Shown here: in pieces, positions 11,447-53,244 of the stretch
Layout: the number at the start of each line of letters is the position of its first letter
How positions within the stretch are numbered: the stretch's first letter is position 1
Assembly (NCBI GenBank): GCA_030602715.1
Contig: JAUVZD010000002.1
Location: forward strand, 186,001 to 250,000
Source: Candidatus Coatesiibacteriota bacterium
GTDB lineage: Bacteria; RBG-13-66-14; B26-G2; JAUVZD01
Length of the DNA stretch: 64,000 nt
Reading direction: 5' to 3'
The notes under the pieces: model-generated
Told to the model about the DNA's origin: nothing
Database searches by the model: none
Seen by the model: the letters and a program-made list of their open reading frames with translations, nothing else
Translations under genes and position numbers: made by a program

Positions 11447-11521
11447 ATCGGCTTCTACGCCCTGGAGGAGCTGGGGGATGGGATGAACCGTTTGGTGCGG
11501 TTGGGCGCCAAAAGTGAGTAG
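11447..11521 (+). pseudogene. 3'-end remnant of the 37-residue-repeat gene (second scrap)
   Basis: Twenty-four codons read IGFYALEELGDGMNRLVRLG and four more residues before TAG. Over about 54 bp the DNA is almost identical to the 3' end of the intact gene (12783-12840), so the duplication is recent. There is no start codon or upstream repeat. Confidence 0.75.
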
Positions 11522-11625: not shown

Positions 11626-12846
11626 ATGAAGATCATTGGTTTTTCTCTGGCGATATTATTCCTATTCCTCGTTTCCGTTGGTAATTGCCAGCAGGGAGGC
11701 GGGAAGACCACCTACCAACCGAAGGAGGTGGGGACCTACGGACCTTTTGTGCATGTGGAAAACCTTCTCTGTTCCCCCGACGGCTCCTCTTGGGGATTTG
11801 AGGTTGAGAAGTCAGATGGGAAGTATGCTGTCATCAACAGCCATGAGTGGGGACCATATGGGGATTTTAGTCGGATTGCCATATCCTCCGACGGCTCCTC
11901 CTGGGGATTTAGTGCCCACAAGCCAGACGGGAAGTATGCGGTCATCAACAGCCAGGAGTGGGGACCTTATGGGGATGTTAGTCGTATTGCCATATCCTCC
12001 GACGGCTCCTCGTGGGGCTTTAGTGCCCAGAAGCCCGACGGTTGGTATGCAGTCATCAACAGCCAGGAGTGGGGACCATATAGGGATGTTGAGTGGGTTG
12101 TCATATCCTCCGACGGCTCCTCGTGGGGATTTTGGCCTGAGAAGCCCGACGGGTGTTATGCAGTCATCAACGGCCAGGAATGGGGACCTTATGAGTTGGT
12201 TGGGTTGCTTAACATATCCGCCGACGGCTCATCGTGGGGATTTTGGGCTAAGAAGCCCGATGGGTGGTGTGTGGTTATCAACGGCCAGGAATGGGGACCT
12301 TATGAGGGATCTGGGTTGCTTGACATATCCGCCGACGGCTCATCGTGGGGGTCCACTATCACAAAGTCCGATGGGTGGTATGTGTTTATCAACGGCCAGG
12401 AATGGGGACCTTATGAGGGTATTGGGTGGCTTGACATATCCGCTGACGGCTCCTCGTGGGGATTTAGTGCCCAGAAGCCCGATGGGCGGTATGCAGTCAT
12501 CAACGGCCAGGAGTGGGGACCTTATGAGTTTATCGGGCCCATTGTCATCTCCTCCGACGGTTCCTCGTGGGGATTTAATGCCTGGAAGCCCGATGGGCGG
12601 TATGCAGTCATCAACGGCCAGGAGTGGGGACCTTATAGGGATGTAGAGTGGCTTGTCATATCCTCCGATGGCTCCTCGTGGGGATTTACTTTCACAAAGC
12701 GCGATGGGTATTATGCGGTTATCAACGACCAGCAGTGGGGACCATACGGCGAGATACTTCTCTACTCCTCAGAGGGCGCAGTGGGCTTCTACGCCCTGGA
12801 GGAGCTGGGCGATGGGATGAACCGTTTGGTGCGGTTGGGGGAGTGA
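11626..12846 (+). CDS. Exported protein with nine 37-residue WG-like beta repeats
   Basis: A signal peptide (about residues 1-21; a Cys follows but the lipobox is poor) leads into nine consecutive 37-residue repeats over 44-376, each close to ISSDGSSWGF, two to four variable residues, KPDGxYAVINGQEWGPY. The 30-residue tail ends LEELGDGMNRLVRLGE. The pattern recalls WG/KWG and propeller-like repeats, and nine copies could close a beta propeller. The function is unknown. AAGGAG lies eight bases before the ATG. The repeats are strongly conserved at DNA level, and two truncated 3' ends of paralogues lie upstream, so the locus recombines. Confidence 0.85.
   Translation: MKIIGFSLAILFLFLVSVGNCQQGGGKTTYQPKEVGTYGPFVHVENLLCSPDGSSWGFEVEKSDGKYAVINSHEWGPYGDFSRIAISSDGSSWGFSAHKPDGKYAVINSQEWGPYGDVSRIAISSDGSSWGFSAQKPDGWYAVINSQEWGPYRDVEWVVISSDGSSWGFWPEKPDGCYAVINGQEWGPYELVGLLNISADGSSWGFWAKKPDGWCVVINGQEWGPYEGSGLLDISADGSSWGSTITKSDGWYVFINGQEWGPYEGIGWLDISADGSSWGFSAQKPDGRYAVINGQEWGPYEFIGPIVISSDGSSWGFNAWKPDGRYAVINGQEWGPYRDVEWLVISSDGSSWGFTFTKRDGYYAVINDQQWGPYGEILLYSSEGAVGFYALEELGDGMNRLVRLGE
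11755..12753 (+). repeat. Nine tandem 111-bp coding repeats
   Basis: Units of 111 bp encode the 37-residue repeats. Blocks such as GTCATCAACGGCCAGGA and GACGGCTCCTCGTGGGG recur with few changes, much more alike than protein-level selection would require, which indicates recent duplication or gene conversion. Confidence 0.85.
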
Positions 12847-12876
12847 TATGGACAATATGTGAGGAGTGATTCAACT

Positions 12877-37933: not shown

Positions 37934-40900
37934 CTACTCCCCGAACTCCACCTCATCGCTCTGACCGGTGTCGGTATCGGCGGGGGTTATGCGGAAGAGG
38001 ATGCGCTCCCCTCCCACTGTGGTGGGTATGTCGTCTCCCCTCAACCAGGAGACGGTGTGAGTGCCGGAGCTGAAGCCGGAGGTGCTACCCTCAATTGTCG
38101 CCGGATTCCAGGAGAGACCGGCGTCCTCGGAGAACTCGCAGAGCAATTCGCAGGGGTCGCCTTCCGCATCGGTGAGGGTGAACTCTATCAGGGCGATGCC
38201 GGTGTCGGTGTCGTGGCTGTGCCCGGTGATGGAGACCGACGGCGGGGAGTTGTTGTCCACCACGAATGAACCGCTCACCACCGCACTCCCCTCCTTGGTG
38301 TCGGCAGGGATTACCCGCAGGCGCACATCGCTGTGCTCCGTATCCCCCAAGTCGTGGTAAGCATCCCACACAAAGGCGCCCACATAATCTTCGGGGTAGA
38401 TGTTCTCCCCTCCCTCCACTATCGTCGCCCTCTTCCAGGTCCCGCCGCCATCAATTGAGTAGACAACCACCAGGTCAACCACATCCCCTTCGGGGTCGTA
38501 GATGGTGTAATCTATCTCCACCTGCTCCTTCTGTTCCGTCCAGGGGTTGATCAGGGTTATCTGCGGAACTCTGTTCAGGTCCATATCGCCGACCGCTACC
38601 TCGGTGCTAAGCCCCATCTTCATATCCGAGGGGGTGATGCGGAAGCGCACACCATGAAGAACCTGTCCCCCTACATCCGTAACCGCCGCCCAGATGACCA
38701 CCCCACTGTAATCCTGGGGTTGCAGGTCGGTGGAGAGACCCAGGATAGTGGCAAGCTCCCAGCTTCCACCGTCATCCAATGAATACTCGCAGATGAAGGA
38801 GAGTGTGTCCCCCTCGTCGTCGGATAGTTCATAGGGGATCTCCACATCACCGCTATCAGCCACCCGGGGAGAACCCAAGATGACCTGGGGTAAGGCGTTG
38901 TTATCCAGGTTGAAGCTGGCGCTTATCGCCGGCTCACCCCTGTCTGCATCCGCAGGGGTAAGGCTGAAGACCGCAGTAGTCAGTCCCATCCCCGGCAGGT
39001 CGCTTGAGGAATGCCAAGTCAGCTGTCCACGGTAATTCGCCGGGGAGACGTCGGTGGTAATTCCGGAGAGGGTAGCTTCACTCCAGGTCAAGCCACCGTC
39101 CAGGGAATATTCGCCGAAAAGCTTCACCAGGTCGCCCTCGGGGTCGGAGATGGTGTAGTTTATGGGCACATCTCCACTGGCACCCTCCAGGGGGATATCC
39201 ACCGTCACCTGGGGTGAGGCGTTGTTGTCCAGAACGATGCCCGTAATTTCACCCACTTCACCTACATTCTCATCGGAGGGGATGATGCGCAGAGCCACTC
39301 TCTCGCTATAAGTATTTGCCATATCCCTCTCCGAGAGCCAGGTCAGGGTGCCGGCATACATCATACTGTAGATATCCTTGGTGTCGCCCTCATAGGTAGC
39401 GGGATGCCAACTGGCGCCGTCGTCCGGGGAATACTCCAGCGTTATGTTCACCAGGTCGTTCTCAATATCCTCAATGGTGTAATAGACCAAAACATCCCCG
39501 AAGATCTCGTAGTCAATGGGCTCCAGGGTAACTCTTGGGGGAGTGTTGTTGTCCACTCGGAAATCGTCGGTCTCGTCCATCTCCCCCAAATCTTCATCGG
39601 CGGAGATGATGCGGAAGCGCACCGCAGAGGAGTCCAGACCGGGCATGTCATAAAGCGAATCCCAACTGATACTGCCGGAATACCCAGCCGGGCTTATACT
39701 ACTGATGACCCCCTCCAGCTTGGCGGGGTCCCAGGTCTGGCCGCCGTCCAGGGAGAACTCACCGCTTATCTTCAAGGTGTCCCCTTCGTTATCGGAGAGG
39801 GTATAATTGATTGCGACCATACCGGCGGTAACTTCCGTGGGGGTGGCTACCGCGACCGAGGGCGGTGCGTTGTTGTCCACGAACATACCGGCGGTAACCC
39901 CCATAGAGCCCTCATCCTCGTCGCTGGGGACGACCTTGAAAAGGATGCCCTTCTGGTCCACCCCGGCCAGGTCGGCGGCGGTATTCCAGGTCAGAGTGCC
40001 GAAGTAGTCGTCCGGTCCTAATCTCTCGCTCAGTTGGGATACGGTAGCCTCCTGCCAGCTTGCTCCTCCGTCAAGGCTGTAGAAGGTTTGCAGACTGACC
40101 ACATCGCCTTCATCGTCGGCGATAACATAGTCAACCAGAACATCCCCCTCAATCTCCTCAGGAATGTCGGATACGGTGATGTCGGGGGGGATGTTGTTGT
40201 CCAGATGGAAGGGATTGCTTACTCCCGACTCGCCGGGGTCGTTGTCGCCGGGGACCACCCGCACCAGCACATCCTCCTGGTCCAGACCAGGTAAATCCAG
40301 GCTGGAGTTCCACACCACGCTACCGCTGTAGTCGGTCGGCTCCAGATTGACGGTGCTGCCAGCGACGGTAGCAATATTCCAGCTCTGCCCACCGTCCGTA
40401 GAATACTCCACCTCTAAGGAGAGGACATCGGAGTTGGGGTCGGTCAGGGTAAACCGCAACGGCACATCCCCGCTCTCCTCCTCAGTTATCGCCTGCAACT
40501 GTGCAGAGGGCGGGGTATTATTATCCAGGTGGAAGGGACCCACGGTGCCCTCAAAGCCGGGGTCTATATCAAAGGGGGTGACCTTGAACATAATATCCGA
40601 CCGGTCCACATCAGGAAGGTCCTTATCGGAGACCCACCGCACCACGCCGGAGTAAGTGGTGGGGTCTATGGTGGTCTCGGCGGCTACCGTGGCTTGATAC
40701 CAGGTAAAGCCACCGTCGGGGGAATATTCGCACAAAATCTCGTTGGCGTCCTTCTCCTCGTCGGTGATGGTATAGACCACATCAACTATGCCAACCTGCT
40801 CCAACTCAAGCTCGGCAAGCTCCACCGAAGGACGCTCGTTGTTGTCCAGGTGGAAATTCTGGGTCTCTCCGAAGATACCCTCATCATTATCCCAGGGGAT

Positions 40901-43177
40901 GGCCCGGAAGCGGATGTCTGTCTGGTCCACCATAGGAATGTCGTCCTTGCTATGCCAGTAGAGGGAGCCGATGTAGCCGGCGCTGTCTACCTCGTCAGTT
41001 ATCCCGCTAACTGTGGCTGGCCACCAGGTCTCTCCTCCATCCTCGGACCACTCGCAGACCAGACTGACGGTGTCGTTCTCTTCGTCGTGGATGGTATAGT
41101 CAATGAGAATATCGGAATACTGTTCGCCCTCCGGAGTGCTGACCAGAATATCCGGCACCAGGTTGTTGTCTATGTGGATGGGACTGGAGAGAGAAGGCTC
41201 TCCAGAATCCAAATCTGAAGGGGTGACGCGGAAGATTATCTGGTCGTAGTCCACACCCTTGGCATCAACCAACGAACTCCAGATGACCGAGCTCTTGTAC
41301 TCGGAAGGGGAGATAGCCATGTAGTCACCGATGATGGTGGCAAGGTTGAAATTCTCCCCCCCGTCTAAAGAGAACTCACAGTATATACTACAGACATCCC
41401 CCTCCACATCGCTTATGGCGAAGGGGATGGTTACATCACCGGTGGTCTTCTCCTCAATGACTTCCAGAATAGCCACTGTGGGCGGCTCGTTGTTATCCAG
41501 TGCGAAGCTGGTAGTGGTTCCCGGTTTTCCCTCGTCGTTGTCATGGGGAACGATCATGAACTGGGTGGTATTGCTGAACAGATTGGGGACATCCTGCATA
41601 GAATACCAGACGAGAGAGCCGATATATTCGCTCTCGTCTATGTCCGCCAGAGCGCCGGACACGGTCGCCTCACTCCAGTTTACACCGCCGTCAATAGAAT
41701 ACTTACATAACAGGTTGATCTCATCCTGCTCCATATCGGAGATGGTGTAGAAGACCTCCACATCCTCGCTCTGCTCGCTGGTGAAGTCGGAGAGCAGAAC
41801 CGAGGGCGGGGCGTTGTTGTCCACATAGATTTCCGGGGAGACTGCCGGTTCGCCGTCATCGGAATCTGAGGGAGTGATGCGGAAGAGCACCTCCGTTGAA
41901 TCCACCCCCAAAAGGTCCACCAGCGAATCCCACAGAATATTACCATCATAATCGGCAGGTTTGATATCGGTCAACAAACCGCTCACCGTGGCGTTTCGCC
42001 AGATAGCCCCGCCGTCGTCTGAGTATTCGCAGACCAGGGAAACCCCGTCCCCCTCTGGGTCGGATATGCTGAAGATTATCGGGAACTCACCATACTGCTC
42101 CTCCTCCAACATATGGATAGTCATCTGCGGGGTCTGGTTGTTGTCCAGGTGGAAGTTACCTGAGGTGTCCAGCTTTCCCTCGTCGTTATCCTTGGGTATT
42201 ATTCTGAACTGGAAGGTGCGGCTGTCCGTTCCAGGGGCGTCCAGCTCGCTCTTCCAGACGATACTGCCCTCATATTGAGACAGGGAGATACCATCTACCT
42301 GCCCCTCCACCGTAGCCTGCTGGAAGTTCTCCCCGCCGTCGGCGGAGAAGAGGCAGGCTATGGATAAGGCATCCTCCTCCCTGTCCCTCAGCTCATACTC
42401 AACGGTAACATCCCCGCCGACCTCCTCGTATATATCGGAGACCAGGATACCGGGCATCTTGTTGTTGTCCAGATGAAAGATGTTGGACCGGGTGGGGATG
42501 CCCGGGTCCAGGTCCATCGCTGTTACCTCAATTATCACCGTCTCACTGTCCAGGTAGGGTTCGTCGCCGTCGGACTCCCAGGAGAAGGAGCCGGTATCAT
42601 ACCTGCTGGGGCGGATCGCCTCCAACTGACCGGTGGTGGACGCATCCTTCCAGGTCTCTCCCCCATCAATTGAATAGCGCACCTTGAGGTCAATTATATC
42701 GTGCTCCGCATCGTGGATGCTGTATTTGAAGACCACATCACCGCTCACCTCTCCCTCCACCTCGGTGAACTCAATCGTGGGAGTTACATTATTATCCACA
42801 TGGAAAACAGCGGTCTCACCGCCGGTCCCCACCCCGTTGGCGTCGCTGGGAATTACCCTGAACTTGACCGACTTCAGCTCCCTGAAATCACGCCGCTCGT
42901 CAGCAAGAATATCGGGGTCGGTAGTCCCCCGCCTCTCCTCCGGACCCTTCATATCGTAGTTGGAATCCCAGATGATAGAGCCCCTGTATCCGCTGGGACC
43001 GATTCCGGTGGTCTTGCTGATCACCTTGGCTTCATACCAGCTCTTGCCGTAATCCAGGGAATACATGGGGCGCATGTCCAGGATATCCCCCTGGCGGTCA
43101 GAGAGGATATATTCTATAACTACTTCGCCGGAAACCTCCTCGGTGATGTCGGTGAGGGTGATTGAGGGAAGCTCGGC
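37934..43177 (-). repeat. Sixteen tandem Ig-like coding repeats of about 320-330 bp
   Basis: Recurring conserved segments (DNN-P-V, then SD-EGD, YSLDGG-W, AT--G, W-S--D-PG-D, FRI-PSD-D-GE) mark each unit. The units are diverged at DNA level, unlike the 111-bp repeats at 11755, so the array is old. Confidence 0.8.
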
Positions 43178-44584
43178 GACACCGCCGGAATAGCCGTAGA
43201 TGGAACAACGCCAGGGCCCCTGTTTGAACTGCGGCCAGGGCATGTCGGTTCGGATGGCCATGGAGTTGGTCAACTCAAAGCAGTAGAGGATGTTGTCCGA
43301 GGAGGGAATCAGAAGCTCCAGGTTACTGTCGCCGTCAATATTGCCCAAGGCGGGGGCGCTGGTGATACGGTAGATGTCAATTCCCCCCACAAGGAACGGG
43401 AAGCCCTCGGAGGTGAGCTGGTTGCCATAGCCGTCAACTGCATAAATATAATTGTTGTTACTTCCTATCAGGGCATCAACGACGCCGTCCGAATTGATGT
43501 CAGCCAGAACCACCGAGGAGTTCAGAAGCCTTCCGCCCAGATAAACACCCGGCACCTCAATGGTATCACCGCTGTAGCTCTCTTCCTCGTGGGTCCAGCC
43601 GGCGACAGGCAAGCCGTTGCCGTCAAAGGCGTAGATGTAGCCGTCTCCGGAGCCGAAGACCACCTCCAAGACATTGTCGTTGTCAATATCTCCCAGAGCC
43701 GGGGAGGAGAAGTTGAGCTTGTAGGTGGTGGTGACCGGCCAGCCGCGCACTGCAACCCCGTTACTTTCAAAGGCATACATGGAGAAGTCATCGGAACCGC
43801 AGACCAGCTCATAGGCACCGTCTCCGTCTATGTCGCCCATCGCCGGGGAGGAGCGGACGAAGTAGCCGGTGCGCTTCTTCCACATAATCTCCGGCTCACC
43901 CATACGATACTTGAGCAGATAGATATAGCCGTCATCGCAACCCACGGCTATCTCCATCACATCATCCTGGTCCATATCCCCCAGGCAGGGGGAGGATTCT
44001 ATTGCCGCACCGGAGGAACTCAGCTGGAACGGAAAGCCGGATAGTAAGAAACCGCTTGCGTTCCAGGCGTAGAGGTAACCGTCGGTGGTGCCCACCAGGA
44101 CGTCGTTTTGCAGATCACCGTCAATATCCCCGATGCACGGCGTGCAGTGTATCGCCGCAGAGCACTCCTGCGGCCAGCCGGGGAGGTTGGAGCCGTTGCC
44201 GTTGACCACATAGACATAACCGTCCTCGGAGCCGAAGACCACCTCAAAGGCTGAATCGGCATCCAGGTTGCCCGCAGCCGGCGAGGCATAGACCGCTCCC
44301 GCAGCAGGATAGGGCCAACCGGGAACAAACATCCCCGAGGAGCTATAGGCATAGACCATACCGTCCCGCCCGCCGATGACCACCTCGTCAATCCCATCGC
44401 CGTTTATGTCCGCGATTACCGCGCAGGAGAGATTCTCCGTTCCTTGGCCGATAAACTGCTGCCACTGGTCAATGAACCCGCCGTAGCTATAAGCGCACAA
44501 AGAAAGCAGGGCTACGGCGGTAAAGAACACCGTCAAGCCCCACCTTATGCGGAAATGAGAGGAGTGCGGATAACTCATATTCAT
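37934..44584 (-). CDS. Giant exported protein: FG-GAP-like propeller plus sixteen Ig-like repeats
   Basis: The 2216-residue protein has a signal peptide (about 12-40), then eight FG-GAP/VCBS-like blades over roughly residues 40-460, for example ADINGDGIDEVVIGGRDG and SPALGDIDNDNVLEVVFGSG, whose DxDxDG loops should bind calcium. Sixteen repeats of about 108 residues follow, each closing with a DNNxxP linker and containing YSxDGGxxW and FRxxPSDxDxG. It ends without a visible sorting signal or anchor. It is likely a surface fibre or matrix protein. I chose the ATG at 44584; a TTG at 44611 is possible. Confidence 0.85.
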   Translation of the reverse strand: MNMSYPHSSHFRIRWGLTVFFTAVALLSLCAYSYGGFIDQWQQFIGQGTENLSCAVIADINGDGIDEVVIGGRDGMVYAYSSSGMFVPGWPYPAAGAVYASPAAGNLDADSAFEVVFGSEDGYVYVVNGNGSNLPGWPQECSAAIHCTPCIGDIDGDLQNDVLVGTTDGYLYAWNASGFLLSGFPFQLSSSGAAIESSPCLGDMDQDDVMEIAVGCDDGYIYLLKYRMGEPEIMWKKRTGYFVRSSPAMGDIDGDGAYELVCGSDDFSMYAFESNGVAVRGWPVTTTYKLNFSSPALGDIDNDNVLEVVFGSGDGYIYAFDGNGLPVAGWTHEEESYSGDTIEVPGVYLGGRLLNSSVVLADINSDGVVDALIGSNNNYIYAVDGYGNQLTSEGFPFLVGGIDIYRITSAPALGNIDGDSNLELLIPSSDNILYCFELTNSMAIRTDMPWPQFKQGPWRCSIYGYSGGVAELPSITLTDITEEVSGEVVIEYILSDRQGDILDMRPMYSLDYGKSWYEAKVISKTTGIGPSGYRGSIIWDSNYDMKGPEERRGTTDPDILADERRDFRELKSVKFRVIPSDANGVGTGGETAVFHVDNNVTPTIEFTEVEGEVSGDVVFKYSIHDAEHDIIDLKVRYSIDGGETWKDASTTGQLEAIRPSRYDTGSFSWESDGDEPYLDSETVIIEVTAMDLDPGIPTRSNIFHLDNNKMPGILVSDIYEEVGGDVTVEYELRDREEDALSIACLFSADGGENFQQATVEGQVDGISLSQYEGSIVWKSELDAPGTDSRTFQFRIIPKDNDEGKLDTSGNFHLDNNQTPQMTIHMLEEEQYGEFPIIFSISDPEGDGVSLVCEYSDDGGAIWRNATVSGLLTDIKPADYDGNILWDSLVDLLGVDSTEVLFRITPSDSDDGEPAVSPEIYVDNNAPPSVLLSDFTSEQSEDVEVFYTISDMEQDEINLLCKYSIDGGVNWSEATVSGALADIDESEYIGSLVWYSMQDVPNLFSNTTQFMIVPHDNDEGKPGTTTSFALDNNEPPTVAILEVIEEKTTGDVTIPFAISDVEGDVCSIYCEFSLDGGENFNLATIIGDYMAISPSEYKSSVIWSSLVDAKGVDYDQIIFRVTPSDLDSGEPSLSSPIHIDNNLVPDILVSTPEGEQYSDILIDYTIHDEENDTVSLVCEWSEDGGETWWPATVSGITDEVDSAGYIGSLYWHSKDDIPMVDQTDIRFRAIPWDNDEGIFGETQNFHLDNNERPSVELAELELEQVGIVDVVYTITDEEKDANEILCEYSPDGGFTWYQATVAAETTIDPTTYSGVVRWVSDKDLPDVDRSDIMFKVTPFDIDPGFEGTVGPFHLDNNTPPSAQLQAITEEESGDVPLRFTLTDPNSDVLSLEVEYSTDGGQSWNIATVAGSTVNLEPTDYSGSVVWNSSLDLPGLDQEDVLVRVVPGDNDPGESGVSNPFHLDNNIPPDITVSDIPEEIEGDVLVDYVIADDEGDVVSLQTFYSLDGGASWQEATVSQLSERLGPDDYFGTLTWNTAADLAGVDQKGILFKVVPSDEDEGSMGVTAGMFVDNNAPPSVAVATPTEVTAGMVAINYTLSDNEGDTLKISGEFSLDGGQTWDPAKLEGVISSISPAGYSGSISWDSLYDMPGLDSSAVRFRIISADEDLGEMDETDDFRVDNNTPPRVTLEPIDYEIFGDVLVYYTIEDIENDLVNITLEYSPDDGASWHPATYEGDTKDIYSMMYAGTLTWLSERDMANTYSERVALRIIPSDENVGEVGEITGIVLDNNASPQVTVDIPLEGASGDVPINYTISDPEGDLVKLFGEYSLDGGLTWSEATLSGITTDVSPANYRGQLTWHSSSDLPGMGLTTAVFSLTPADADRGEPAISASFNLDNNALPQVILGSPRVADSGDVEIPYELSDDEGDTLSFICEYSLDDGGSWELATILGLSTDLQPQDYSGVVIWAAVTDVGGQVLHGVRFRITPSDMKMGLSTEVAVGDMDLNRVPQITLINPWTEQKEQVEIDYTIYDPEGDVVDLVVVYSIDGGGTWKRATIVEGGENIYPEDYVGAFVWDAYHDLGDTEHSDVRLRVIPADTKEGSAVVSGSFVVDNNSPPSVSITGHSHDTDTGIALIEFTLTDAEGDPCELLCEFSEDAGLSWNPATIEGSTSGFSSGTHTVSWLRGDDIPTTVGGERILFRITPADTDTGQSDEVEFGE

Positions 44585-44688
44585 CCAAGCCGCCTTTCCC
44601 CGATAAGACAAATCACCACTAACTATCCCTTTGGGGAGATGATTGAGGATAGAAGCTTCTCAGGTAAAGCTCAAAACACTTCCCGTTA

Positions 44689-45546: not shown

Positions 45547-46917
45547 CTACTTCTCCTTCACCTCATCCTTTGCCCCCCCAGCCTCCCTCTCCTCCCTCCG
45601 TCCCACCCACTTTCCTACCAGTATGCTGGTCACCACATCTCCGTTGACATTGAGGGTGGTGCGAGCCATATCCAGCGCTCTATCCACACCGAAGAGGACC
45701 ACCACAGCCCCCGCCGGCAGCCCGTAGCGGATGAGCACGCCAGCCAGAAGAATCAGACCCGATGCCGGCACAGCCGCCGCCCCGATGCTTACCATGGTCA
45801 GATTGCCCATGAGTCCAATCTTCTGAGGCAGGTCCAGATGAACTCCAAACAGGTCGGTCAGGAATATCGCCGCCGAACCCTGATAAAGTGCGGTGCCAGC
45901 CATATCTATTGTGGCGCCGATGGGCACCACGAAGCGGGCGATGCTCTCCGGCACCTTGAAGCGCTCCATGCAAGCCCTCATCGTCAGAGGGAGGGTGGCA
46001 GCGCTGGAGGAGGTGCTGAAGGCGAGGAGCAGGGCGTCCTTCACCGAGCGTAGGTAGTAGCCCACCTTCACCCCGGCTAAGATGCGCAGGACCAGCATAT
46101 GCATAATGAAGGTAAGCACCAGCCCACCGATTACTACAAGCGAAAATATTGCCAGTATCTTGAGCAGGTCCATGCCCATGGTCACCATACTGTCAAAGGT
46201 GAGGGCGAAGACGGCGAAGGGGACAATCTTCATGGCGAAGCTGACGATGGTGAGCGATGTGTTCATCATAGAATCGCTCAAGTCCAGAAGCGGCTGGGAC
46301 CTCTCCCTCCTCTGCACCAGCAGGGCGAAGCCGATGATTATCGCCAGGGTGATGATCTGCATCATATTGGCCGAGGCAAGGGTGCTGAAGAGGTTTGTGG
46401 GAAGAATACTGCTGATAAATCCACCGCTCCCTTCAGCATCGCCGGTTTTGACCAGGCCGGCAAAATCCTGGTCAGCCTTCACCTTTTGCACCAGCGTCTC
46501 CCTCTGCTCCGGGGAGAGGAAGGAGGTGGGCTGGACCAACTCCATTATGAAGATGCCTAAAGCGATAGCCATCAGGGTTAGCGCCAGATAGCAGAGGAGG
46601 GTGTAGATGCCCACGGTGCGCAACTTCTGGGGGTCTTTCAGAGCGGCGACACCGCTTATGATGGAGGAGAAGACCAGGGGTACCAGAATAAGTTGGATGA
46701 TGGAGAGGAAGATAGTGCCTATAGGCTCAAGGAAGCCTATGAGCCGTTCGGTTACTTTGGGGGAGACCAGGTTGGTCTCGGGACCGAAGAGCAAGCCGAG
46801 TGTGATGCCCAGGATAATGGCCAGGATTACCTGCAGGTGGAGCTTCTGGCGCACCAGCTTGATCTGCGCCTGGACCACCTTCTCCACCTGGTCCACTATG
46901 TGAGGTCGTTTGGGCAT
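45547..46917 (-). CDS. Dicarboxylate/amino acid:cation symporter (DAACS family)
   Basis: The 456-residue protein has about eight transmembrane segments and the family landmarks: the serine-rich hairpin FSTSSSAATLPLTM, PIGATIDMAGTALYQG in the TM7 region, and GAAAVPASGLILLAGVL in the second hairpin. The canonical NMDGT cation-site motif reads DMAGT here, so ion coupling may differ. Substrate is glutamate, aspartate or a C4-dicarboxylate. The first 19 codons and 100 bp of upstream DNA are duplicated at 49055-49210. Confidence 0.95.
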   Translation of the reverse strand: MPKRPHIVDQVEKVVQAQIKLVRQKLHLQVILAIILGITLGLLFGPETNLVSPKVTERLIGFLEPIGTIFLSIIQLILVPLVFSSIISGVAALKDPQKLRTVGIYTLLCYLALTLMAIALGIFIMELVQPTSFLSPEQRETLVQKVKADQDFAGLVKTGDAEGSGGFISSILPTNLFSTLASANMMQIITLAIIIGFALLVQRRERSQPLLDLSDSMMNTSLTIVSFAMKIVPFAVFALTFDSMVTMGMDLLKILAIFSLVVIGGLVLTFIMHMLVLRILAGVKVGYYLRSVKDALLLAFSTSSSAATLPLTMRACMERFKVPESIARFVVPIGATIDMAGTALYQGSAAIFLTDLFGVHLDLPQKIGLMGNLTMVSIGAAAVPASGLILLAGVLIRYGLPAGAVVVLFGVDRALDMARTTLNVNGDVVTSILVGKWVGRREEREAGGAKDEVKEK

Positions 46918-47017
46918 GGATTGGGGGGGATGTTATGGGGTGTGTTTTGCAATTCGGGTAATGATAACATAGTTGGAGGGAGAAGGCAAAACTATAGCGG
47001 AGGTTATAAGCCTCCGC
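46862..47017 (-). repeat. Symporter 5' end and upstream DNA: first copy of a 156-bp duplication
   Basis: This block contains the first 19 codons of the symporter, its leader, its promoter and a GCGGAGG/CCTCCGC hairpin. A second copy of equal length at 49055-49210 differs at about seven positions, two of them compensatory in the hairpin loop region. Confidence 0.93.
46961..46989 (-). promoter_or_regulatory. Extended -10 promoter of the symporter gene
   Basis: TTGCCT and TATCAT are 17 bases apart on the minus strand, with TATGT directly before the -10. Confidence 0.6.
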
Positions 47018-47106
47018 AAAAAAAGTATTGTTTTTGGTAATTATTATAAATTAGACGTTTTTTGCGTATTTATTTTAGTTCTTGTTATATTGCCTTGTAT
47101 TTCTTG

Positions 47107-48801
47107 TTATTTTCCTAATAGACTTTTTATATATTCTTTATAACAGTCTGATATTTTTCCTGACCTTTCTTTAATGAATTTTTCGTAATTCTTTTTATTC
47201 CATAGTTCTTCATTAACATCTATTATTTGGCTTTTTAATTGTATATTACTAATCATACCAAAATATTTTTCAGGGACATCATTTCCAAACCTTTTGTGAC
47301 TATCTCTACTAATTAATACAATATTTCCTATTAAATCTTTTTCAGAAGATATTTTCGATTTTGGAAATACATGATGATTATTTATTTCCTTGCGTTCTTT
47401 TATCAAACTGCACATTTCAATTGGTTCACCTTCATTCCAATCTAAAGCATTTTTTCTGATTAAAGACCAATATAAAATAAAGTATGGAATATATTGTAAA
47501 AATGTACCTTCTACAGTGTTTTCATCTATAATATCTTTTATATCTTCGTCTTTCATAAATCCAAATTTCCCCATATATCTTATAAAATCATCTATTTTAG
47601 GGATTTTGTTGATTCTATCATTATCTACACCAATAATTTCAACTAAACATTTTTCAAGCGGTGTTTCAAAGCTTCCAGTATAAATCCCTTTTAAAGTAGC
47701 TACATGGAAATGATATAACATAATTCTTCTTTCTTCATCACTTAAATTGTTAGAACCAACCCTTCCAATGTAAAAGACAATTGGCACCAGAACATTTTGC
47801 GATGGCATAGTTTTTCTAATTATATTATTTGGTAATCCTTCGTTTTTAATTATCTCTATTGTTTTTAAAAATGATTTTGAGAATTCTTCTGTTTTTTCTT
47901 CAATTGTTTTGCTATCAATATCTCCCAGATTCTTTTTTATTGACTCCAAGTTTTGACTCAATCTTTGTGTTCCTAAAAGATGTGCTGAAAAAGCTCTTAA
48001 AAATATTGATGTCTCAATATCAAAACCCATATCTAAACAATCTCTTTCAAGTTCAGTAAAAGTATTACTAATTCTTTTATCCAAGTCTTTTGTTTGAAAC
48101 GCAATCCAAGAAAAAAAGATATCAGTTGCCTTTAATTTAGTTCCTGCTGTGTTAACCTTTTCAAATATTTCTAGAACTCTTAGATAATCATATTTTTCCC
48201 CTGTCATAACTAATATTGGAAATTCATAATTTAACATATTATGAACCTTTTGCAATCTAGCCATTATCTTATCTCTATTCTCCTCATAATCTTCTCTATC
48301 TTTCAATTTTTCTTCAAATTCCTTTTTTATCTTCTCAAGTTTTTCATCATCAGATCTTAATACCTTTGAAACCTCTATCCATTTAATGTCCATTCTTCTC
48401 TTAGCGAATGAAAACTTTTCATCAAATACATCAAACATTATTGGGGATAAAATATCATTTCTAATATTACTTATTTCATGTTCACCGATCTTATCTCTAG
48501 CTTTACTATCACTTAAATTACCGTTAGAAAAATATGCTAACCAAATTGATTTTACTCTTTGTTGTCCATCAATAATTAAAAGATTCTCACCACCAGCCAT
48601 TTTTGATTCTTCCCTTAGTGGTATAGATTTTGGTGGAATCCAAAAAAGCAAACTACCTGTAGGGTCATCATTGTATATTGAATTAATAAATTTCTCAATT
48701 TGGTTTTGTTTCCATACAAATCTCCTTTGAACTTCTGGAATCAATAGATTCTCACCATCAAAATGATCTACTAATTCTTTAAAAGTATAATTTCTAGTAC
48801 C
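47107..48801 (-). CDS. DUF262/HNH nuclease (GmrSD-like defence protein)
   Basis: The 564-residue protein starts with a DUF262 (GmrS-like ParB/Srx fold) domain: IPEVQRRFVWKQNQIEKFINSI and the DGQQR motif in LLIIDGQQRVKSIWLA, which serves NTP binding and hydrolysis. The C terminus has an HNH-type nuclease block, NNHHVFPKSK then GNIVLISRDSHKRFGN. This DUF262-then-HNH order is that of fused GmrSD-type type IV restriction systems. The ATG at 48801 has GGAGG five bases upstream. Markedly A+T-rich; flanked by duplicated host fragments. Confidence 0.85.
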   Translation of the reverse strand, partial: GTRNYTFKELVDHFDGENLLIPEVQRRFVWKQNQIEKFINSIYNDDPTGSLLFWIPPKSIPLREESKMAGGENLLIIDGQQRVKSIWLAYFSNGNLSDSKARDKIGEHEISNIRNDILSPIMFDVFDEKFSFAKRRMDIKWIEVSKVLRSDDEKLEKIKKEFEEKLKDREDYEENRDKIMARLQKVHNMLNYEFPILVMTGEKYDYLRVLEIFEKVNTAGTKLKATDIFFSWIAFQTKDLDKRISNTFTELERDCLDMGFDIETSIFLRAFSAHLLGTQRLSQNLESIKKNLGDIDSKTIEEKTEEFSKSFLKTIEIIKNEGLPNNIIRKTMPSQNVLVPIVFYIGRVGSNNLSDEERRIMLYHFHVATLKGIYTGSFETPLEKCLVEIIGVDNDRINKIPKIDDFIRYMGKFGFMKDEDIKDIIDENTVEGTFLQYIPYFILYWSLIRKNALDWNEGEPIEMCSLIKERKEINNHHVFPKSKISSEKDLIGNIVLISRDSHKRFGNDVPEKYFGMISNIQLKSQIIDVNEELWNKKNYEKFIKERSGKISDCYKEYIKSLLGK

Positions 48802-48845
48802 CATATGAACCTCCACGTAAAAATCGTTCAATGCTATTAGTATTA

Positions 48846-48874
48846 AGAATAACATAATAAAAATGAGATGTCAA
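48846..48874 (-). promoter_or_regulatory. Extended -10 promoter of the DUF262 gene
   Basis: Perfect TTGACA, 17 bases, then TATTCT, with TTATGT before the -10, on the minus strand. The ATG is 45 bp downstream. Confidence 0.75.
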
Positions 48875-48923
48875 GCAAAATACTAGAATTTAGAGTCTTC
48901 TTTTCCACAGTCTTTTTCCATAC

Positions 48924-48958
48924 AAAAAACCCCCGCCATTCACTTGGGCGAGGGTTTT
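48924..48958 (-). terminator. Terminator after the chimeric mini-ORF
   Basis: AAAACCCCCGCC pairs with GGGCGAGGGTTTT across a short loop, 27 bp past the mini-ORF stop; Ts follow on the minus strand. Confidence 0.8.
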
Positions 48959-48984
48959 GATTATTTTCGGTCTATCGTAGGGGC

Positions 48985-49110
48985 TCAGCCGGCGTATATC
49001 TCCTTCTTCTCCTCGTCGGAGAGAGCCTCGGTAACACTGCCGTAGATGCGCTTAATCTGCGCCTGGATGACCCTCTCCACCTGGTCCATTATGTGAGGTC
49101 GTTTGGGCAT
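48985..49110 (-). CDS. 41-residue chimeric ORF: symporter N terminus fused to radical SAM C terminus
   Basis: Starting from the duplicated symporter ATG, the frame encodes MPKRPHIMDQVERVIQAQIK, matching the symporter's first 20 residues except three, and continues in frame as RIYGSVTEALSDEEKKEIYAG, the last 21 residues of the radical SAM protein encoded at 51772. The crossover is at the shared QIK codons (DNA CTTGATCTG on the plus strand). The promoter, leader and a terminator are present. Whether it is translated is unknown; it is either a new small gene or a recombination scar. Confidence 0.75.
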   Translation of the reverse strand: MPKRPHIMDQVERVIQAQIKRIYGSVTEALSDEEKKEIYAG

Positions 49111-49210
49111 GGATTGGGGGGGATGTTATGGGGTATGTTTTGCAATTCGGGTAATGATAACATAGTTGGAGGGAGAAGGCAAAACTATAGCGGAGGTTTT
49201 AAACCTCCGC
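49055..49210 (-). repeat. Second copy of the symporter 5' duplication
   Basis: Equal in length to 46862-47017 and about 95 percent identical by eye. It joins, at 48985-49060, a 76-bp copy of the radical SAM 3' end (original at 51772-51847; about four differences). Confidence 0.93.
49154..49182 (-). promoter_or_regulatory. Duplicated promoter upstream of the chimeric ORF
   Basis: Identical to the symporter promoter: TTGCCT, 17 bases ending TATGT, TATCAT on the minus strand. Confidence 0.6.
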
Positions 49211-49275
49211 TTCATAAACACATCTATTCCCTATCGTCTTGCTTTCCTGCGCAGGGCGAAGATGGAGAGGGAGGT

Positions 49276-50961
49276 TTACTGTCTAAAAGTAAATTTGTTT
49301 ACAAAGAACGAAACCAAACTACCAAGCATTATAAAACCTAAAAGAACCTCAATTAAAACGTAAACTTTTGCAGGTATGTTTTCAGCTACAAAATCAGCCA
49401 TACCTAGAGAAGTGAAGACAAGACCTGATAAGTAGAAATTATCAAACCAACCTCCAGACGGCGAACTTGTTTTCAAATAAACTTTTGGATGCAAGCAACA
49501 CAACCAATCGTCAATCGGTGAAGGAACCCACTCTTGAATTTCAAATCCCATATAAATAACACCAAAAAACACAATTACAAAAATACAACAGAAAAGCCAA
49601 AGACTTATCCTTTCGCCCCATAAAGATGTAATGCCCCACAATTTATAAAGGAAAGGACTTCTCCTTTGTAATGCAAAAAGATTTTGTTGAAATCTGATAT
49701 CTGATACTAATTGTGGTGAAACAATCAATGTCTCATTGGTAAAAGTAGTTTCTCTAAAAATAATAGCACCACGCATTAATTTTGGTCTATAAAATGAAGA
49801 GCAAAACCTTCTAAATTTTCTAAATACAAAGACAGGGAATATGATTGGTGTAATAAGAACAAGTATTAACCACAAGAACAATTTCCCCAGTATATACCAA
49901 ACATTTGGTAATATTTTATAACTGAAGCTCAATAGGCTAGATGGGAAGCTTTCCTTTGAAACACCAATATGGGCTTTTGAAAGATCAGCACCGAAAAATT
50001 CTGCTTTATTAAGATTCGCATCTACTAAAATTGTATCTGGATGTGATAGATCTGAATTATGAAAACTAACACAGGAAAGATTTGCTCTGTTAAAATATAC
50101 ACCTCCTAAAAACTCTGATCTATTTAAGTCACCTCCAGATATAAACTTTGCACCAAAGAAATCAGCTATCTTTTTGAAACTTGATTTTGAAAAGTCTACT
50201 TCTTTTCTAAATTCTGCCCCCCTGAAGTTAGACATGCTATAAAAATTTGCCTCGCTGAAATCTACAGACCCATCAAATGTTACATTTGAAAATATACATG
50301 AATCAAAACATTCAATAAAACTGAAAACAGCTTTCCCTGAAAAAAAAGCACTACTAAAACTCAACATACCCTTGAAGGTTGAACAATCTATAATAAAGTC
50401 TCCGTTAAAATTTGCTTTATGAAAATTGGTTTTTTTAGAAAATTCCGTAGCCGAAAAAAAGACTCCACCTTTAAAATTAACACCGTTAAAATGAGTATTA
50501 CTATAAAATATGTTTCTAGAAAAATTAGCATCGCCTTCAAATAAAGTCTTGTCAAATATAGCATCCTCGTGAAATTCTGATTCCTTAAAATTAATATTTC
50601 CATGGAATGTTGCATTTGAAAAATCAACTTTAGATAAAAACTCGGCTTCGCAAAAATTTACGTCACCATCAAATTCTACATAACATAAATTAACTTTAAT
50701 TCCTTTAGGAAATTGGAAACCTTCAAAAAAATCTCTTGTCTTTGGAAATACGAAACCCTCAAAATTCCATGTATCTACACCCGAATTTTTTAAATCTTCA
50801 ACTATTTTTGTAAAAGCATCCCAAAACTCATTCTTAAATTTTGCTGATGAAGGTGCATGAAAAATGCAGTATCTTTCACCTTTTCGAGTTATCTTCCCAT
50901 ATTTCTCATAAATACATTTTTCTCCTAATTTTCCCCAACTCTTATACTCATAATCACACAT
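49276..50961 (-). CDS. Pentapeptide-repeat protein with C-terminal ion-channel-like membrane domain
   Basis: The 561-residue protein has a short Cys-containing N terminus, then about residues 85-330 of pentapeptide-like repeats (VDFSNATFHGNINFKESEF and the like) forming a right-handed beta helix. The C terminus has three hydrophobic segments with YLSGLVFTSLGMADFV and then KVYVLIEVLLGFIMLG: the pore-loop and inner-helix pattern of two-TM potassium channels, with TxxGYGD degenerated to TSLGMAD. GGGAG lies before the ATG. A+T-rich and probably acquired. Confidence 0.82.
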   Translation of the reverse strand: MCDYEYKSWGKLGEKCIYEKYGKITRKGERYCIFHAPSSAKFKNEFWDAFTKIVEDLKNSGVDTWNFEGFVFPKTRDFFEGFQFPKGIKVNLCYVEFDGDVNFCEAEFLSKVDFSNATFHGNINFKESEFHEDAIFDKTLFEGDANFSRNIFYSNTHFNGVNFKGGVFFSATEFSKKTNFHKANFNGDFIIDCSTFKGMLSFSSAFFSGKAVFSFIECFDSCIFSNVTFDGSVDFSEANFYSMSNFRGAEFRKEVDFSKSSFKKIADFFGAKFISGGDLNRSEFLGGVYFNRANLSCVSFHNSDLSHPDTILVDANLNKAEFFGADLSKAHIGVSKESFPSSLLSFSYKILPNVWYILGKLFLWLILVLITPIIFPVFVFRKFRRFCSSFYRPKLMRGAIIFRETTFTNETLIVSPQLVSDIRFQQNLFALQRRSPFLYKLWGITSLWGERISLWLFCCIFVIVFFGVIYMGFEIQEWVPSPIDDWLCCLHPKVYLKTSSPSGGWFDNFYLSGLVFTSLGMADFVAENIPAKVYVLIEVLLGFIMLGSLVSFFVNKFTFRQ

Positions 50962-51066
50962 ATCATTCTCCCTTCTAATTCACACTAAATTTTATTATAA
51001 AAACAATTATTTAAATTACAAGCAATAAATTTCCCATACAACACCACTAGCGACGATGGGTATCGT

Positions 51067-51125
51067 CGCCTTCAAATATAAATAACCCCCCCCCCCCCCA
51101 AAGGCGGGGGGGGCTTTATCATCCA
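51067..51125 (-). terminator. C/G-tract terminator and repeat module, copy A, after hicA
   Basis: CGCCTTCAAATATAAATAA is followed by 14 C, AAAGG, and C then eight G; the arms form a long hairpin. On the minus strand it terminates hicA. It matches copy B at 51690-51760. A perfect hairpin GCGACGAT/ATCGTCGC lies just to its left (51051-51070). Confidence 0.75.
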
Positions 51126-51145
51126 ATTAAAAGTATAAATCAACA

Positions 51146-51355
51146 TTATTTAGAATAGAAATGTTTATATAGCAAGTCAACGGATATATATTTTGAAGCT
51201 TGTTTGATAATGGCTTTCAATGTCCCTTCGCCCAATTCTTTATGGTTGGGAATAATTAAGGTCTCCTTCAATCCTTCAGTCGTCCTTCGTAATTTCAGAT
51301 GGCTTCCTATTTGTCTTAAAACCTTAAATCCAAATCCCTCAAATATAGAAACCAC
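51146..51355 (-). CDS. hicA: HicA-family mRNA interferase toxin
   Basis: The 69-residue protein has FGFKVLRQIGSHLKLRR, containing the catalytic His in the GSH motif, and TLIIPNHKELGEGTLKAIIKQA, both diagnostic. The best start is the GTG at 51355, but homologous residues of the N-terminal strand (LSAKEV) are encoded before it without any in-frame start after the hicB stop, so the 5' end is uncertain. It lies 24 bp after hicB. Toxin cuts mRNA when free of antitoxin. Confidence 0.88.
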   Translation of the reverse strand: MVSIFEGFGFKVLRQIGSHLKLRRTTEGLKETLIIPNHKELGEGTLKAIIKQASKYISVDLLYKHFYSK

Positions 51356-51379
51356 CTCTTTGGCGGATAATGTTTCAGC

Positions 51380-51607
51380 TTAGGTGACCTGCACCGGCTC
51401 TACTTCATAAGTTATGACTATAACCGGGTCCTCCACAAAGCCCAACTCCTGCGCATCCCCGTCCTCAAGCGCCAGCGCGATAGCTTCTTTCACATTCTCT
51501 ACCGTCTCATCCAGGGTCTTACCCTGAGTGATCACAGATAAATCCGAGCACTCAGCGACATAGTATTTCTCTCCGCGAAAGATATTTACGAATACGGTTC
51601 TTCTCAT
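51380..51607 (-). CDS. hicB: HicB-family antitoxin
   Basis: The 75-residue protein begins VFVNIFRGEKYYVAECSDLS and has TQGKTLDETVENVKEAIALALE, the conserved HicB core that neutralises HicA. It has no visible C-terminal HTH or ribbon-helix-helix region, so autoregulation may depend on the complex. The ATG at 51607 has GGAGG five bases upstream. Gene order hicB-hicA reverses the commoner order. Confidence 0.88.
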   Translation of the reverse strand: MRRTVFVNIFRGEKYYVAECSDLSVITQGKTLDETVENVKEAIALALEDGDAQELGFVEDPVIVITYEVEPVQVT

Positions 51608-51623
51608 CTCAACCTCCATATCC

Positions 51624-51652
51624 ATTGTATCATAAAATCCATCATTTGTAAT
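51624..51652 (-). promoter_or_regulatory. Extended -10 promoter of hicBA
   Basis: TACAAT preceded by TATGA on the minus strand, with a weak ATTACA -35 17 bases upstream. Confidence 0.5.
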
Positions 51653-51673
51653 AGAAATTCTGAACCTACGCTA

Positions 51674-51760
51674 CCCCGCCAAAGGCGGGGGCGCCTTCAA
51701 ATATAAACAAACCCCCCCCCGCCAAAGGCGGGGGGGGGTTTTATAGTCCAATCTAAAATT
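51674..51760 (-). terminator. C/G-tract terminator and repeat module, copy B, after the radical SAM gene
   Basis: CCCCGCC/GGCGGGG hairpin (51674-51690) is followed by CGCCTTCAAATATAAACAA, then a C tract, GCCAAAGGC and a G tract, closing a long stem. The order hairpin, conserved linker, C/G stem is the same as copy A; the two bracket hicBA. Confidence 0.75.
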
Positions 51761-51771
51761 ATCAGCACCGA

Positions 51772-53244
51772 CTAGCCGGCGTATATCTCCTTCTTCTCCT
51801 CGTCGGAGAGTGCCTCGGTAACACTGCCGTAGATGCGCTTGATCTGCTCCTCTCGGTGCGGGTCGTGTCCGTATTCCCTCTCCATGTTCTTCTCCATAAC
51901 ATCCGGGTCGTCGTTGTGCTCGGCAAGCCACTGGGCAAAGCGCTCGGAGAGGTCCTCCAGGAAGGGAGCAAACTCGGTTACGATGGAATCGGCGCCCTCG
52001 TGGGTCCAATAGACCTCGTCGCCGGCTTCCTCCAGCACCTCACGCAACTGCTCGTTGGCGTCTATGAGCATACAGGGCTGTCTGCGGTCCAGCTTGTAGG
52101 GCTGGCGCTTGCGGATGGCTTTGAACAGTGGGGAGCCAAGCGCTTCTTTGAGGGTGGTATCCTTGATGTTGTGAGTGGCAAAGTGGCAGAAGACACAGGG
52201 CTCAATGTCCCCCTTGGAGTTGATGTGGAAGTAGTGCTTTCCGCCGGCAATACAGCCGTCAACATAGTCGCCGTCGTTCCAGAAGTCGGCGATGAAGACC
52301 CCTTTGGTGCCGCGCAGTTGGCGGATGCGCTTTCTCAGCCAGCCCCTCTGCTCCGGAGTGAGCATCAGGTCGGTGGTGGCGCCTTTGCCCAGAGGCATGT
52401 AGTGGAAATACCAGCCGTAGAAGACGCCCCGCTCCTGCAGGTCGTCCATGAACTCGTCGGAGGCAACTATATCCAGGTTGTAGTGGTGGGCGGTGCAGGA
52501 GAAGGCGAACAGTCCGCCCAGCTCCTTGAGATATGCCATAGCGTCGGTTAGCTTCTTATAGGTGCCCTTACCTCTCCGCTCGTCGGTCTCCTGCTCAAAG
52601 CCCTCAACGGAGATGGCCGGGATGACATTGCCCAGCTCCACCAGCTTCTTAGCCATAGCCCGGTCTATCAGGGTGGCGTTGGTGTAGAACTGGAAGGTCA
52701 TATCCGGGTGCTCCTCGCACATGCGGATGAAGTGCGGCCAGTAGAGGGGCTCACCGCCGGAGATGATGACCAGATACATCCCCAGGTCCTTCGCCTGGGC
52801 GAGGATATCCTTCACCTGCTCGTAGTCCAGACCCTTAGCCCGATAGGAGCTGGCGTAACAGCCGAAGCAGGAGAGGTTGCAAGCCATGGTGGGGGAGATG
52901 ACCAGGTGAGAGGGGGGATAGAATCCCAGCTCCTCCTTCACCTTATAGCGGGTCTGGTAACCCAGCAGAGCTTCATTGGCGATGAGATTGCGCATGATGG
53001 TGCGGCGCACATGGGGGTCCAGCTCCCGCATGAACTTGCGAGACATGTGCATCTGGGGGTGATTTATCTCCAGACGATGGTGGAAGCCCTCAACCGCACT
53101 GGACCACAGCGGGTTATTGGTAATCCTTGCGGCAATCTCAACTATCTTTATCAGGTCCTCATCAGTGCCGGATTCGGCCAGGGCACACATCTGGTCAATA
53201 GCCTGGTCAACAGCCATCTCCTTTATCTTGTCCTTGATGCCCAT
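51772..53244 (-). CDS. Radical SAM protein with SPASM-like C-terminal cysteines
   Basis: The 490-residue protein has the radical SAM motif CNLSCFGCYASSYRAKG (CxxxCxxC), the glycine-rich GGEPLYWPHF, and further Cys in CIAGGKHYFHINSKGDIEPCVFCHF, typical of a SPASM/twitch extension binding auxiliary clusters. Members modify peptides or make small-molecule cofactors; no precursor peptide gene is adjacent. GGAGG lies before the ATG. Its last 22 codons plus stop are duplicated at 48985. Confidence 0.87.
   Translation of the reverse strand: MGIKDKIKEMAVDQAIDQMCALAESGTDEDLIKIVEIAARITNNPLWSSAVEGFHHRLEINHPQMHMSRKFMRELDPHVRRTIMRNLIANEALLGYQTRYKVKEELGFYPPSHLVISPTMACNLSCFGCYASSYRAKGLDYEQVKDILAQAKDLGMYLVIISGGEPLYWPHFIRMCEEHPDMTFQFYTNATLIDRAMAKKLVELGNVIPAISVEGFEQETDERRGKGTYKKLTDAMAYLKELGGLFAFSCTAHHYNLDIVASDEFMDDLQERGVFYGWYFHYMPLGKGATTDLMLTPEQRGWLRKRIRQLRGTKGVFIADFWNDGDYVDGCIAGGKHYFHINSKGDIEPCVFCHFATHNIKDTTLKEALGSPLFKAIRKRQPYKLDRRQPCMLIDANEQLREVLEEAGDEVYWTHEGADSIVTEFAPFLEDLSERFAQWLAEHNDDPDVMEKNMEREYGHDPHREEQIKRIYGSVTEALSDEEKKEIYAG

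What the first reader, a model, noticed from the sequence alone, without database searches (positions are those of the whole stretch)
48985..49210. Chimeric 41-codon gene made from two neighbouring genes
The duplicated 5' end of the symporter gene (promoter, leader, 20 codons) is joined in frame, at a shared nine-base QIK-coding sequence, to the duplicated last 22 codons of the radical SAM gene, with a terminator downstream. The parent ends lie 2.1 kb and 2.7 kb away on either side. Drift has been modest (about seven and four differences), and the frame is intact.
Basis: seen in the sequence. Interest (0 to 1): 0.68.

Follow-up and report, generated by a model that had tools for sequence, protein, structure and literature searches.

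The report
Gene-end fusion scar beside acquired genes
The 41-codon "chimeric gene" is real in the assembly, but it is most likely a scar left when foreign defence-type genes were stacked between two host genes by sloppy recombination, and the same kind of scar recurs elsewhere in this genome.

Summary
At 48985-49110 (-) the first 20 codons, leader, promoter and upstream hairpin of an SDF symporter gene (S) are fused to the last codons of a radical SAM/SPASM gene (A). The parents share 11 nt (GCAGATCAAGC) at the joint. The reading as a new chimeric gene is not supported.

The geometry is A - X - S'·A' - Y - S. This is the reverse-order joint of a duplication of the A|S boundary. X is HicBA plus a pentapeptide-repeat gene; Y is a DUF262 (GmrSD_N) gene at about 27% GC in a 52% GC contig. 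At the enoyl-CoA hydratase|biotin carboxylase boundary (C4:70.4-72.8 kb) the same S'·A' scar occurs twice, between three AT-rich genes including an Mrr endonuclease; the one read in full there is out of frame. Other AT-rich segments are also bounded by 57-173-nt direct repeats of host gene ends.

Pooled flank-copy differences are strongly synonymous (15 nonsynonymous of 54, about 43 expected). At the hydratase locus this means the copies diverged as functional genes before joining, so they came from a relative. Best explanation: additive integration of allelic cargo by illegitimate recombination. Caveats: no reads, no close relative, and one DUF262 locus lacks such repeats.

The parts
51772..53244 (-). 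Gene A: radical SAM/SPASM protein, 490 aa, resident copy (source of the 3' part)
   Evidence: ORF; Pfam PF04055 6.8e-23 and PF13186
51774..51851 (-). Resident 3' end of A, parent of the second half of the chimera
   Evidence: Direct repeat, 96% to 48987-49064
49211..51771 (-). Segment X: HicB-position ORF (51380-51625), HicA toxin (51146-51355), pentapeptide-repeat protein (49276-50961); mostly 28-37% GC
   Evidence: Pfam PF07927 2.6e-14, PF13576 2.9e-28; GC profile
49050..49210 (-). S': copy of symporter hairpin, promoter, leader and first 20 codons
   Evidence: 95% to 46857-47017; promoter-like TTGCCT-17-TATCAT in both copies
48987..49064 (-). A': copy of the last codons of the radical SAM gene
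   Evidence: 96% to 51774-51851
48985..49110 (-). Chimeric 41-codon ORF S'-A'; parents share 11 nt GCAGATCAAGC at the joint
48917..48965 (-). Terminator-like hairpin downstream of the chimera
   Evidence: -19 kcal/mol, z -3.0, followed by a run of T
47018..48984 (-). Segment Y: DUF262 / GmrSD_N protein, 582 aa, defence-type gene; 24-31% GC inside the gene
   Evidence: Pfam PF03235 8.6e-30; PADLOC HEC-05 9.3e-40; GC
46857..47017 (-). Resident hairpin, promoter, leader and 5' end of the symporter gene, parent of S'
45547..46917 (-). Gene S: sodium:dicarboxylate symporter (SDF), 456 aa, resident copy
   Evidence: Pfam PF00375 1.4e-98, domain starts at residue 26, so S' carries no domain
51067..51757 (-). 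HicBA bounded by direct copies of a terminator-like element (51067-51132, 51692-51757, 82%)

Best explanation
The fusion is a recombination scar, not a gene made for a purpose. The boundary between genes A and S has been a landing place for short foreign DNA. One lineage had A-X-S, another A-Y-S. A fragment from one, carrying only about 70-160 nt of A and S at its ends, entered the other. Its two ends, or one end and the chromosome, were joined at an 11-nt match, making S'-A'. The other side joined by ordinary homologous recombination. Cargo was therefore added rather than replaced, leaving A - X - S'-A' - Y - S. The 41-codon ORF is in frame by chance and still has the symporter promoter, so it may be transcribed. 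Shown: the geometry, the microhomology, the AT-rich cargo, the recurrence elsewhere, and the synonymous bias of flank copies at the hydratase locus. Inferred: that the flank copies at this locus came from a relative, and the exact route (single crossover of an end-joined circle, or homology-facilitated illegitimate recombination).
For: Geometry: the left part of the middle copy matches the right partner and its right part the left partner, the signature of a duplication joint. Recurrence: C4:72301-72484 and 71519-71609 are two more such joints between the 3' end of an enoyl-CoA hydratase gene and the 5' end of the next gene, each with about 8 nt overlap and each separating AT-rich genes including an Mrr endonuclease. 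In 833 kb of this genome 14 isolated close direct-repeat pairs were found, and 9 enclose intervals as AT-rich as the lowest 10% (binomial about 1e-6; some pairs share a locus). Another DUF262 gene (C1:11471-13153) sits between 57-nt copies of the 3' end of the neighbouring UPF0014 gene. Origin: flank copies differ from residents mostly at synonymous sites (15 nonsynonymous of 54, 42.7 expected; hydratase locus 10 of 40), although the hydratase copy A' is out of frame in its fusion; A' and A'' share no amino-acid change against A. Ku was not found and ComEC is present, compatible with DNA uptake. Precedent: recircularised fragments integrating by single crossover left 109-950 bp duplications of the flank, and homology-facilitated illegitimate recombination shows 3-10 bp matches (PMC3240628); an additive insertion with a very small tandem duplication arose by transformation (PMC3784515).
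Against: At this locus alone the counts are too small to show a donor origin (2 synonymous and 3 nonsynonymous in S'; 2 and 0 in A'). The pooled test is dominated by the hydratase locus, where A/A' and A/A'' share the resident branch. No relative carrying A-X-S or A-Y-S was found. A third DUF262 gene (C18:21.9 kb) has no flanking repeats, so the route is not universal. X keeps about 60 nt of GC-rich sequence before the hairpin that Y lacks, so more than one step occurred.
Confidence: 0.64

Rival explanations
1. In-place tandem duplication: the A|S boundary of this strain was duplicated at the 11-nt match when the spacer was short, and the HicBA/pentapeptide and DUF262 genes were inserted later into the two spacers.
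For: Same final geometry; the few differences at this locus fit drift after duplication.
Against: Homology between the two spacers stops exactly at the stop codon of A and at the base of the S hairpin, with no clear remnant of a common spacer (13 and 80 of 300 shuffles align as well). The same coincidence of duplication and cargo recurs at other loci, and the hydratase copies carry synonymous divergence that in-place drift would not give.
Confidence: 0.18
2. Assembly artefact: two co-existing strains (A-X-S and A-Y-S) were wrongly joined end to end at a short overlap.
For: The genome is in 18 contigs and one (C3) ends in what reads as an rRNA operon, as mixed or short-read assemblies do; reads were not available.
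Against: No N runs in the 833 kb read. Flank lengths (57-173 nt) and identities (83-98%) vary, unlike a fixed overlap length. Three cargo genes are chained at the hydratase locus, whose copies differ by up to about 17%. The S'' piece at C4:71587-71609 has no start codon (TTT in place of ATG), so it is not a working gene start of a co-existing strain.
Confidence: 0.12
3. A functional new small gene: duplication put a symporter promoter in front of a fused ORF that is now translated and retained.
For: Promoter-like site, hairpins and frame are intact; the A' part has only synonymous changes.
Against: No family match; 3 of 7 differing codons change the residue; an open frame is expected in 74% of random cases; the ATG is preceded by CCCCCCAATCC, without an AGGAGG-type ribosome site; the sister scar is out of frame.
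Confidence: 0.06

Closest known systems
Single-crossover integration of a recircularised fragment, E. coli conjugation (Amarir-Bouhram et al. 2011, PMC3240628)
   Same: Degraded ends rejoin and the product carries a short duplication (109-950 bp) of the flanking host gene next to foreign DNA
   Different: There a laboratory plasmid; here natural single-gene cargo, with both neighbours' ends fused in reverse order and the process apparently repeated
Homology-facilitated illegitimate recombination (S. pneumoniae, A. baylyi, P. stutzeri)
   Same: One homologous side, one illegitimate joint with 3-10 bp match (PMC3240628); here 11 nt and about 8 nt
   Different: The usual product has a deletion of resident DNA; here host sequence is duplicated
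Orphan immunity gene arrays of Vibrio T6SS clusters (Kirchberger et al. 2017, PMC5361080)
   Same: Arrays are explained by successive insertions anchored on a shared flank, without a known integrase
   Different: There a known effector locus with cognate immunity genes; here ordinary metabolic gene boundaries with defence-type cargo
Transformation-made merodiploids of S. pneumoniae (Johnston et al. 2013, PMC3784515)
   Same: Tandem duplication with a novel joint; one clone had an additive insertion with a very small tandem duplication
   Different: Mostly 100-900 kb duplications through IS repeats

Membership tests
Tandem-duplication joint | Middle copy joins the right end of the unit to its left end, partners on opposite sides in the same orientation | tested here: met
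Tandem-duplication joint | The whole unit between the ends is present twice | tested here: not met
   X and Y are unrelated; spacers share no clear homology beyond the ends
Homology-facilitated illegitimate recombination | Short match (3-10 bp or so) at one joint | tested here: met
   11 nt here; about 8 nt at C4:72417-72424 and 71587-71594
Homology-facilitated illegitimate recombination | Deletion of resident DNA coupled to insertion | tested here: not met
   Host ends are duplicated
Homology-facilitated illegitimate recombination | Incoming DNA from another lineage with homology on one side | tested here: inconclusive
   Synonymous bias of flank copies, mainly at the hydratase locus; no donor genome found
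Single crossover of recircularised fragment | Foreign segment bounded by a short duplication of host flank | tested here: met
Integron cassette array | IntI integrase | tested here: not met
   No TIGR02249 match over its cut-off (best 59.6 of 265 bits)
Integron cassette array | attC sites at each cassette | not tested
   Boundaries are host gene ends that differ from locus to locus
Transposon or integrative element with target duplication | Transposase or integrase in the insert, fixed-length target duplication | tested here: not met
   No such domain among the X and Y ORFs searched; repeat length 57-173 nt
Functional de novo chimeric gene | Translated and retained product | not testable with these tools
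   Only sequence: frame open, no family match

The most novel reading that the evidence does not exclude
The reverse-order gene-end scars are themselves docking sites. Each carries enough homology to both neighbours (about 70-160 nt) to capture the next allele's cargo, so ordinary gene boundaries in this lineage grow integrase-free cassette arrays of defence-type genes.
Probability: 0.2. Interest if true: 0.66.

Novelty: new variant of a known kind. Interest (0 to 1): 0.42.

Why it matters
Many defence genes move without any recognisable mobile element, and how they enter chromosomes is poorly known. A readable scar (reverse-order fusion of neighbouring gene ends, or short direct repeats of a gene end around an AT-rich gene) would let one count and orient such acquisitions from sequence alone. 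It also warns that such fused ORFs should not be annotated as new genes.

Tried and rejected
Relatives: the nearest genome is only in the same order, its A homologue is 64% identical, and in the same-order and same-class genomes A and S homologues do not lie together; 13 GTDB loci were all distant. Viral contigs and plasmids: no relative of A, DUF262 or the pentapeptide protein in viral contigs, no junction match. Rfam and tRNA scans of the window: nothing, so no tRNA or tmRNA attachment site. Site-specific integration at the 3' end of A: rejected, no integrase domain in the insert. Integron: rejected. Joining by Ku: no Ku found. Prospective test on the third DUF262 gene (C18): no repeats, prediction failed there. 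Single-contig relatives as artefact control: they turned out to be scaffolds with N runs; in 400 kb of each, 1 and 6 repeat pairs were found and none of the fusion type.

Full report
What is there. All genes concerned lie on the minus strand. Reading in that direction: gene A (radical SAM/SPASM, 53244-51772), then a HicB-position ORF, HicA and a pentapeptide-repeat protein (segment X), then the chimera (49110-48985), then a DUF262/GmrSD_N protein (segment Y, 48855-47107), then gene S (SDF symporter, 46917-45547). The chimera is a 161-nt copy of the S hairpin, promoter, leader and 20 codons, joined to a 78-nt copy of the A 3' end. Both copies are unique in the 2.31-Mb assembly. At the joint the parents share GCAGATCAAGC.

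What kind of structure it is. In plus coordinates the left part of the middle copy (A') has its partner on the right and the right part (S') its partner on the left. That is the joint of a duplicated A|S boundary. But the stretches between are not duplicated: X and Y are unrelated, at 28-37% and 24-31% GC in their genes, against 52% for the contig. Homology stops at the stop codon of A on one side and at the base of the S hairpin on the other; further alignment of the spacers is not clearly better than shuffled sequence gives.

It is not alone. I read 833 kb of the same genome, the window included. At C4:70.4-72.8 kb the boundary of an enoyl-CoA hydratase gene and a gene starting [18 protein letters not shown] (biotin carboxylase by my reading of its start; not searched) shows the same fusion twice. 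Reading on the minus strand: hydratase - 59-aa AT-rich ORF - S'-A' - 244-aa AT-rich ORF - S''-A'' - Mrr endonuclease - carboxylase. The overlaps at the joints are about 8 nt. There S'-A' is out of frame ([36 protein letters not shown]), so an in-frame product is not what these structures have in common. At C1:11375-13313 a second DUF262 gene (30% GC) lies between 57-nt copies of the 3' end of a UPF0014 gene; at C3:436829-438427 two AT-rich ORFs lie between copies of about 170 nt of a stretch that I read as the 23S-5S rRNA boundary; at C4:103639-105259 copies of another gene end bound a 42% GC segment. Of 14 isolated close repeat pairs, 9 enclose intervals among the 10% most AT-rich (binomial about 1e-6, with the caveat that some pairs belong to one locus).

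Where the copies came from. If a copy were made in place and then drifted, most differences would change residues. Pooled over loci, 15 of 54 do, against 42.7 expected; at the hydratase locus 10 of 40. A' and A'' of the hydratase share many synonymous differences from the resident gene but no amino-acid change. They were therefore most likely parts of working genes in another lineage when they diverged. The pooled P value overstates the case because A/A' and A/A'' share a branch and part of the divergence lies on the resident side, but the absence of shared residue changes is not affected by that. At the window locus itself only seven codon differences exist (3 nonsynonymous), which decides nothing.

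How it most likely arose. Two alleles of the boundary, A-X-S and A-Y-S, met in one cell. A short fragment with stubs of A and S at its ends was joined at a chance 11-nt match, either end to end into a circle that then recombined by a single crossover, or directly to the chromosome. Cargo was added rather than exchanged. In E. coli conjugation, most recombinants that were sought as homology-facilitated illegitimate recombination turned out to be single-crossover products of a shortened, recircularised molecule with 109-950 bp flank duplications (PMC3240628); repeats here are 57-173 nt. In pneumococcus an additive insertion with a very small tandem duplication was recovered after transformation (PMC3784515). 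In Vibrio, arrays of orphan immunity genes are explained by successive insertions of this type (PMC5361080). The genome has ComEC and no detectable Ku, which fits uptake and microhomology joining but proves neither.

Is the ORF a gene? It keeps a promoter-like site and hairpins on both sides. It has no family match and no AGGAGG-type ribosome site before its ATG. An open frame is expected often: one joint in three is in frame, and 74% of simulated copies with seven substitutions remain open. I regard it as incidental.

Artefact? The stretches read hold no N runs. Repeat lengths and identities vary, divergences reach about 17%, three cargo genes are chained at one locus, and S'' lacks a start codon, none of which a simple mis-join of two strains predicts. 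Reads are needed to close the question. A prediction that the third DUF262 gene (C18) would be bounded by such repeats failed, so other routes of entry exist too.

Noticed in passing
51067-51132 and 51692-51757: HicBA is itself bounded by direct copies (82%) of a G/C-tract terminator-like element; similar GCCAAAGGC hairpins occur on several contigs.
   Followed up: partly
49211-49275: A GC-rich stretch directly after the pentapeptide stop reads TSLSIFALRRKARR* on the minus strand, in the same frame; it may be the last codons of a lost host gene that once preceded S.
   Followed up: partly
L062:4391-6843 (C4:70391-72843): Three AT-rich genes, including an Mrr endonuclease (PADLOC PDC-S02, 1.7e-94), separated by two reverse-order fusions of the hydratase 3' end and the carboxylase 5' end.
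   Followed up: yes
L072:16829-18427 (C3:436829-438427): Two AT-rich ORFs without family match lie between partial copies of what reads as the 23S-5S rRNA boundary, next to a contig end.
   Followed up: partly
11662-12849: Nine tandem copies of a 111-nt repeat, bounded by 56-nt near-identical copies at 11450 and 12784.
   Followed up: no
37934-44611: 2225-aa protein built of repeated domains; by eye FG-GAP-like repeats at its start (not searched).
   Followed up: no
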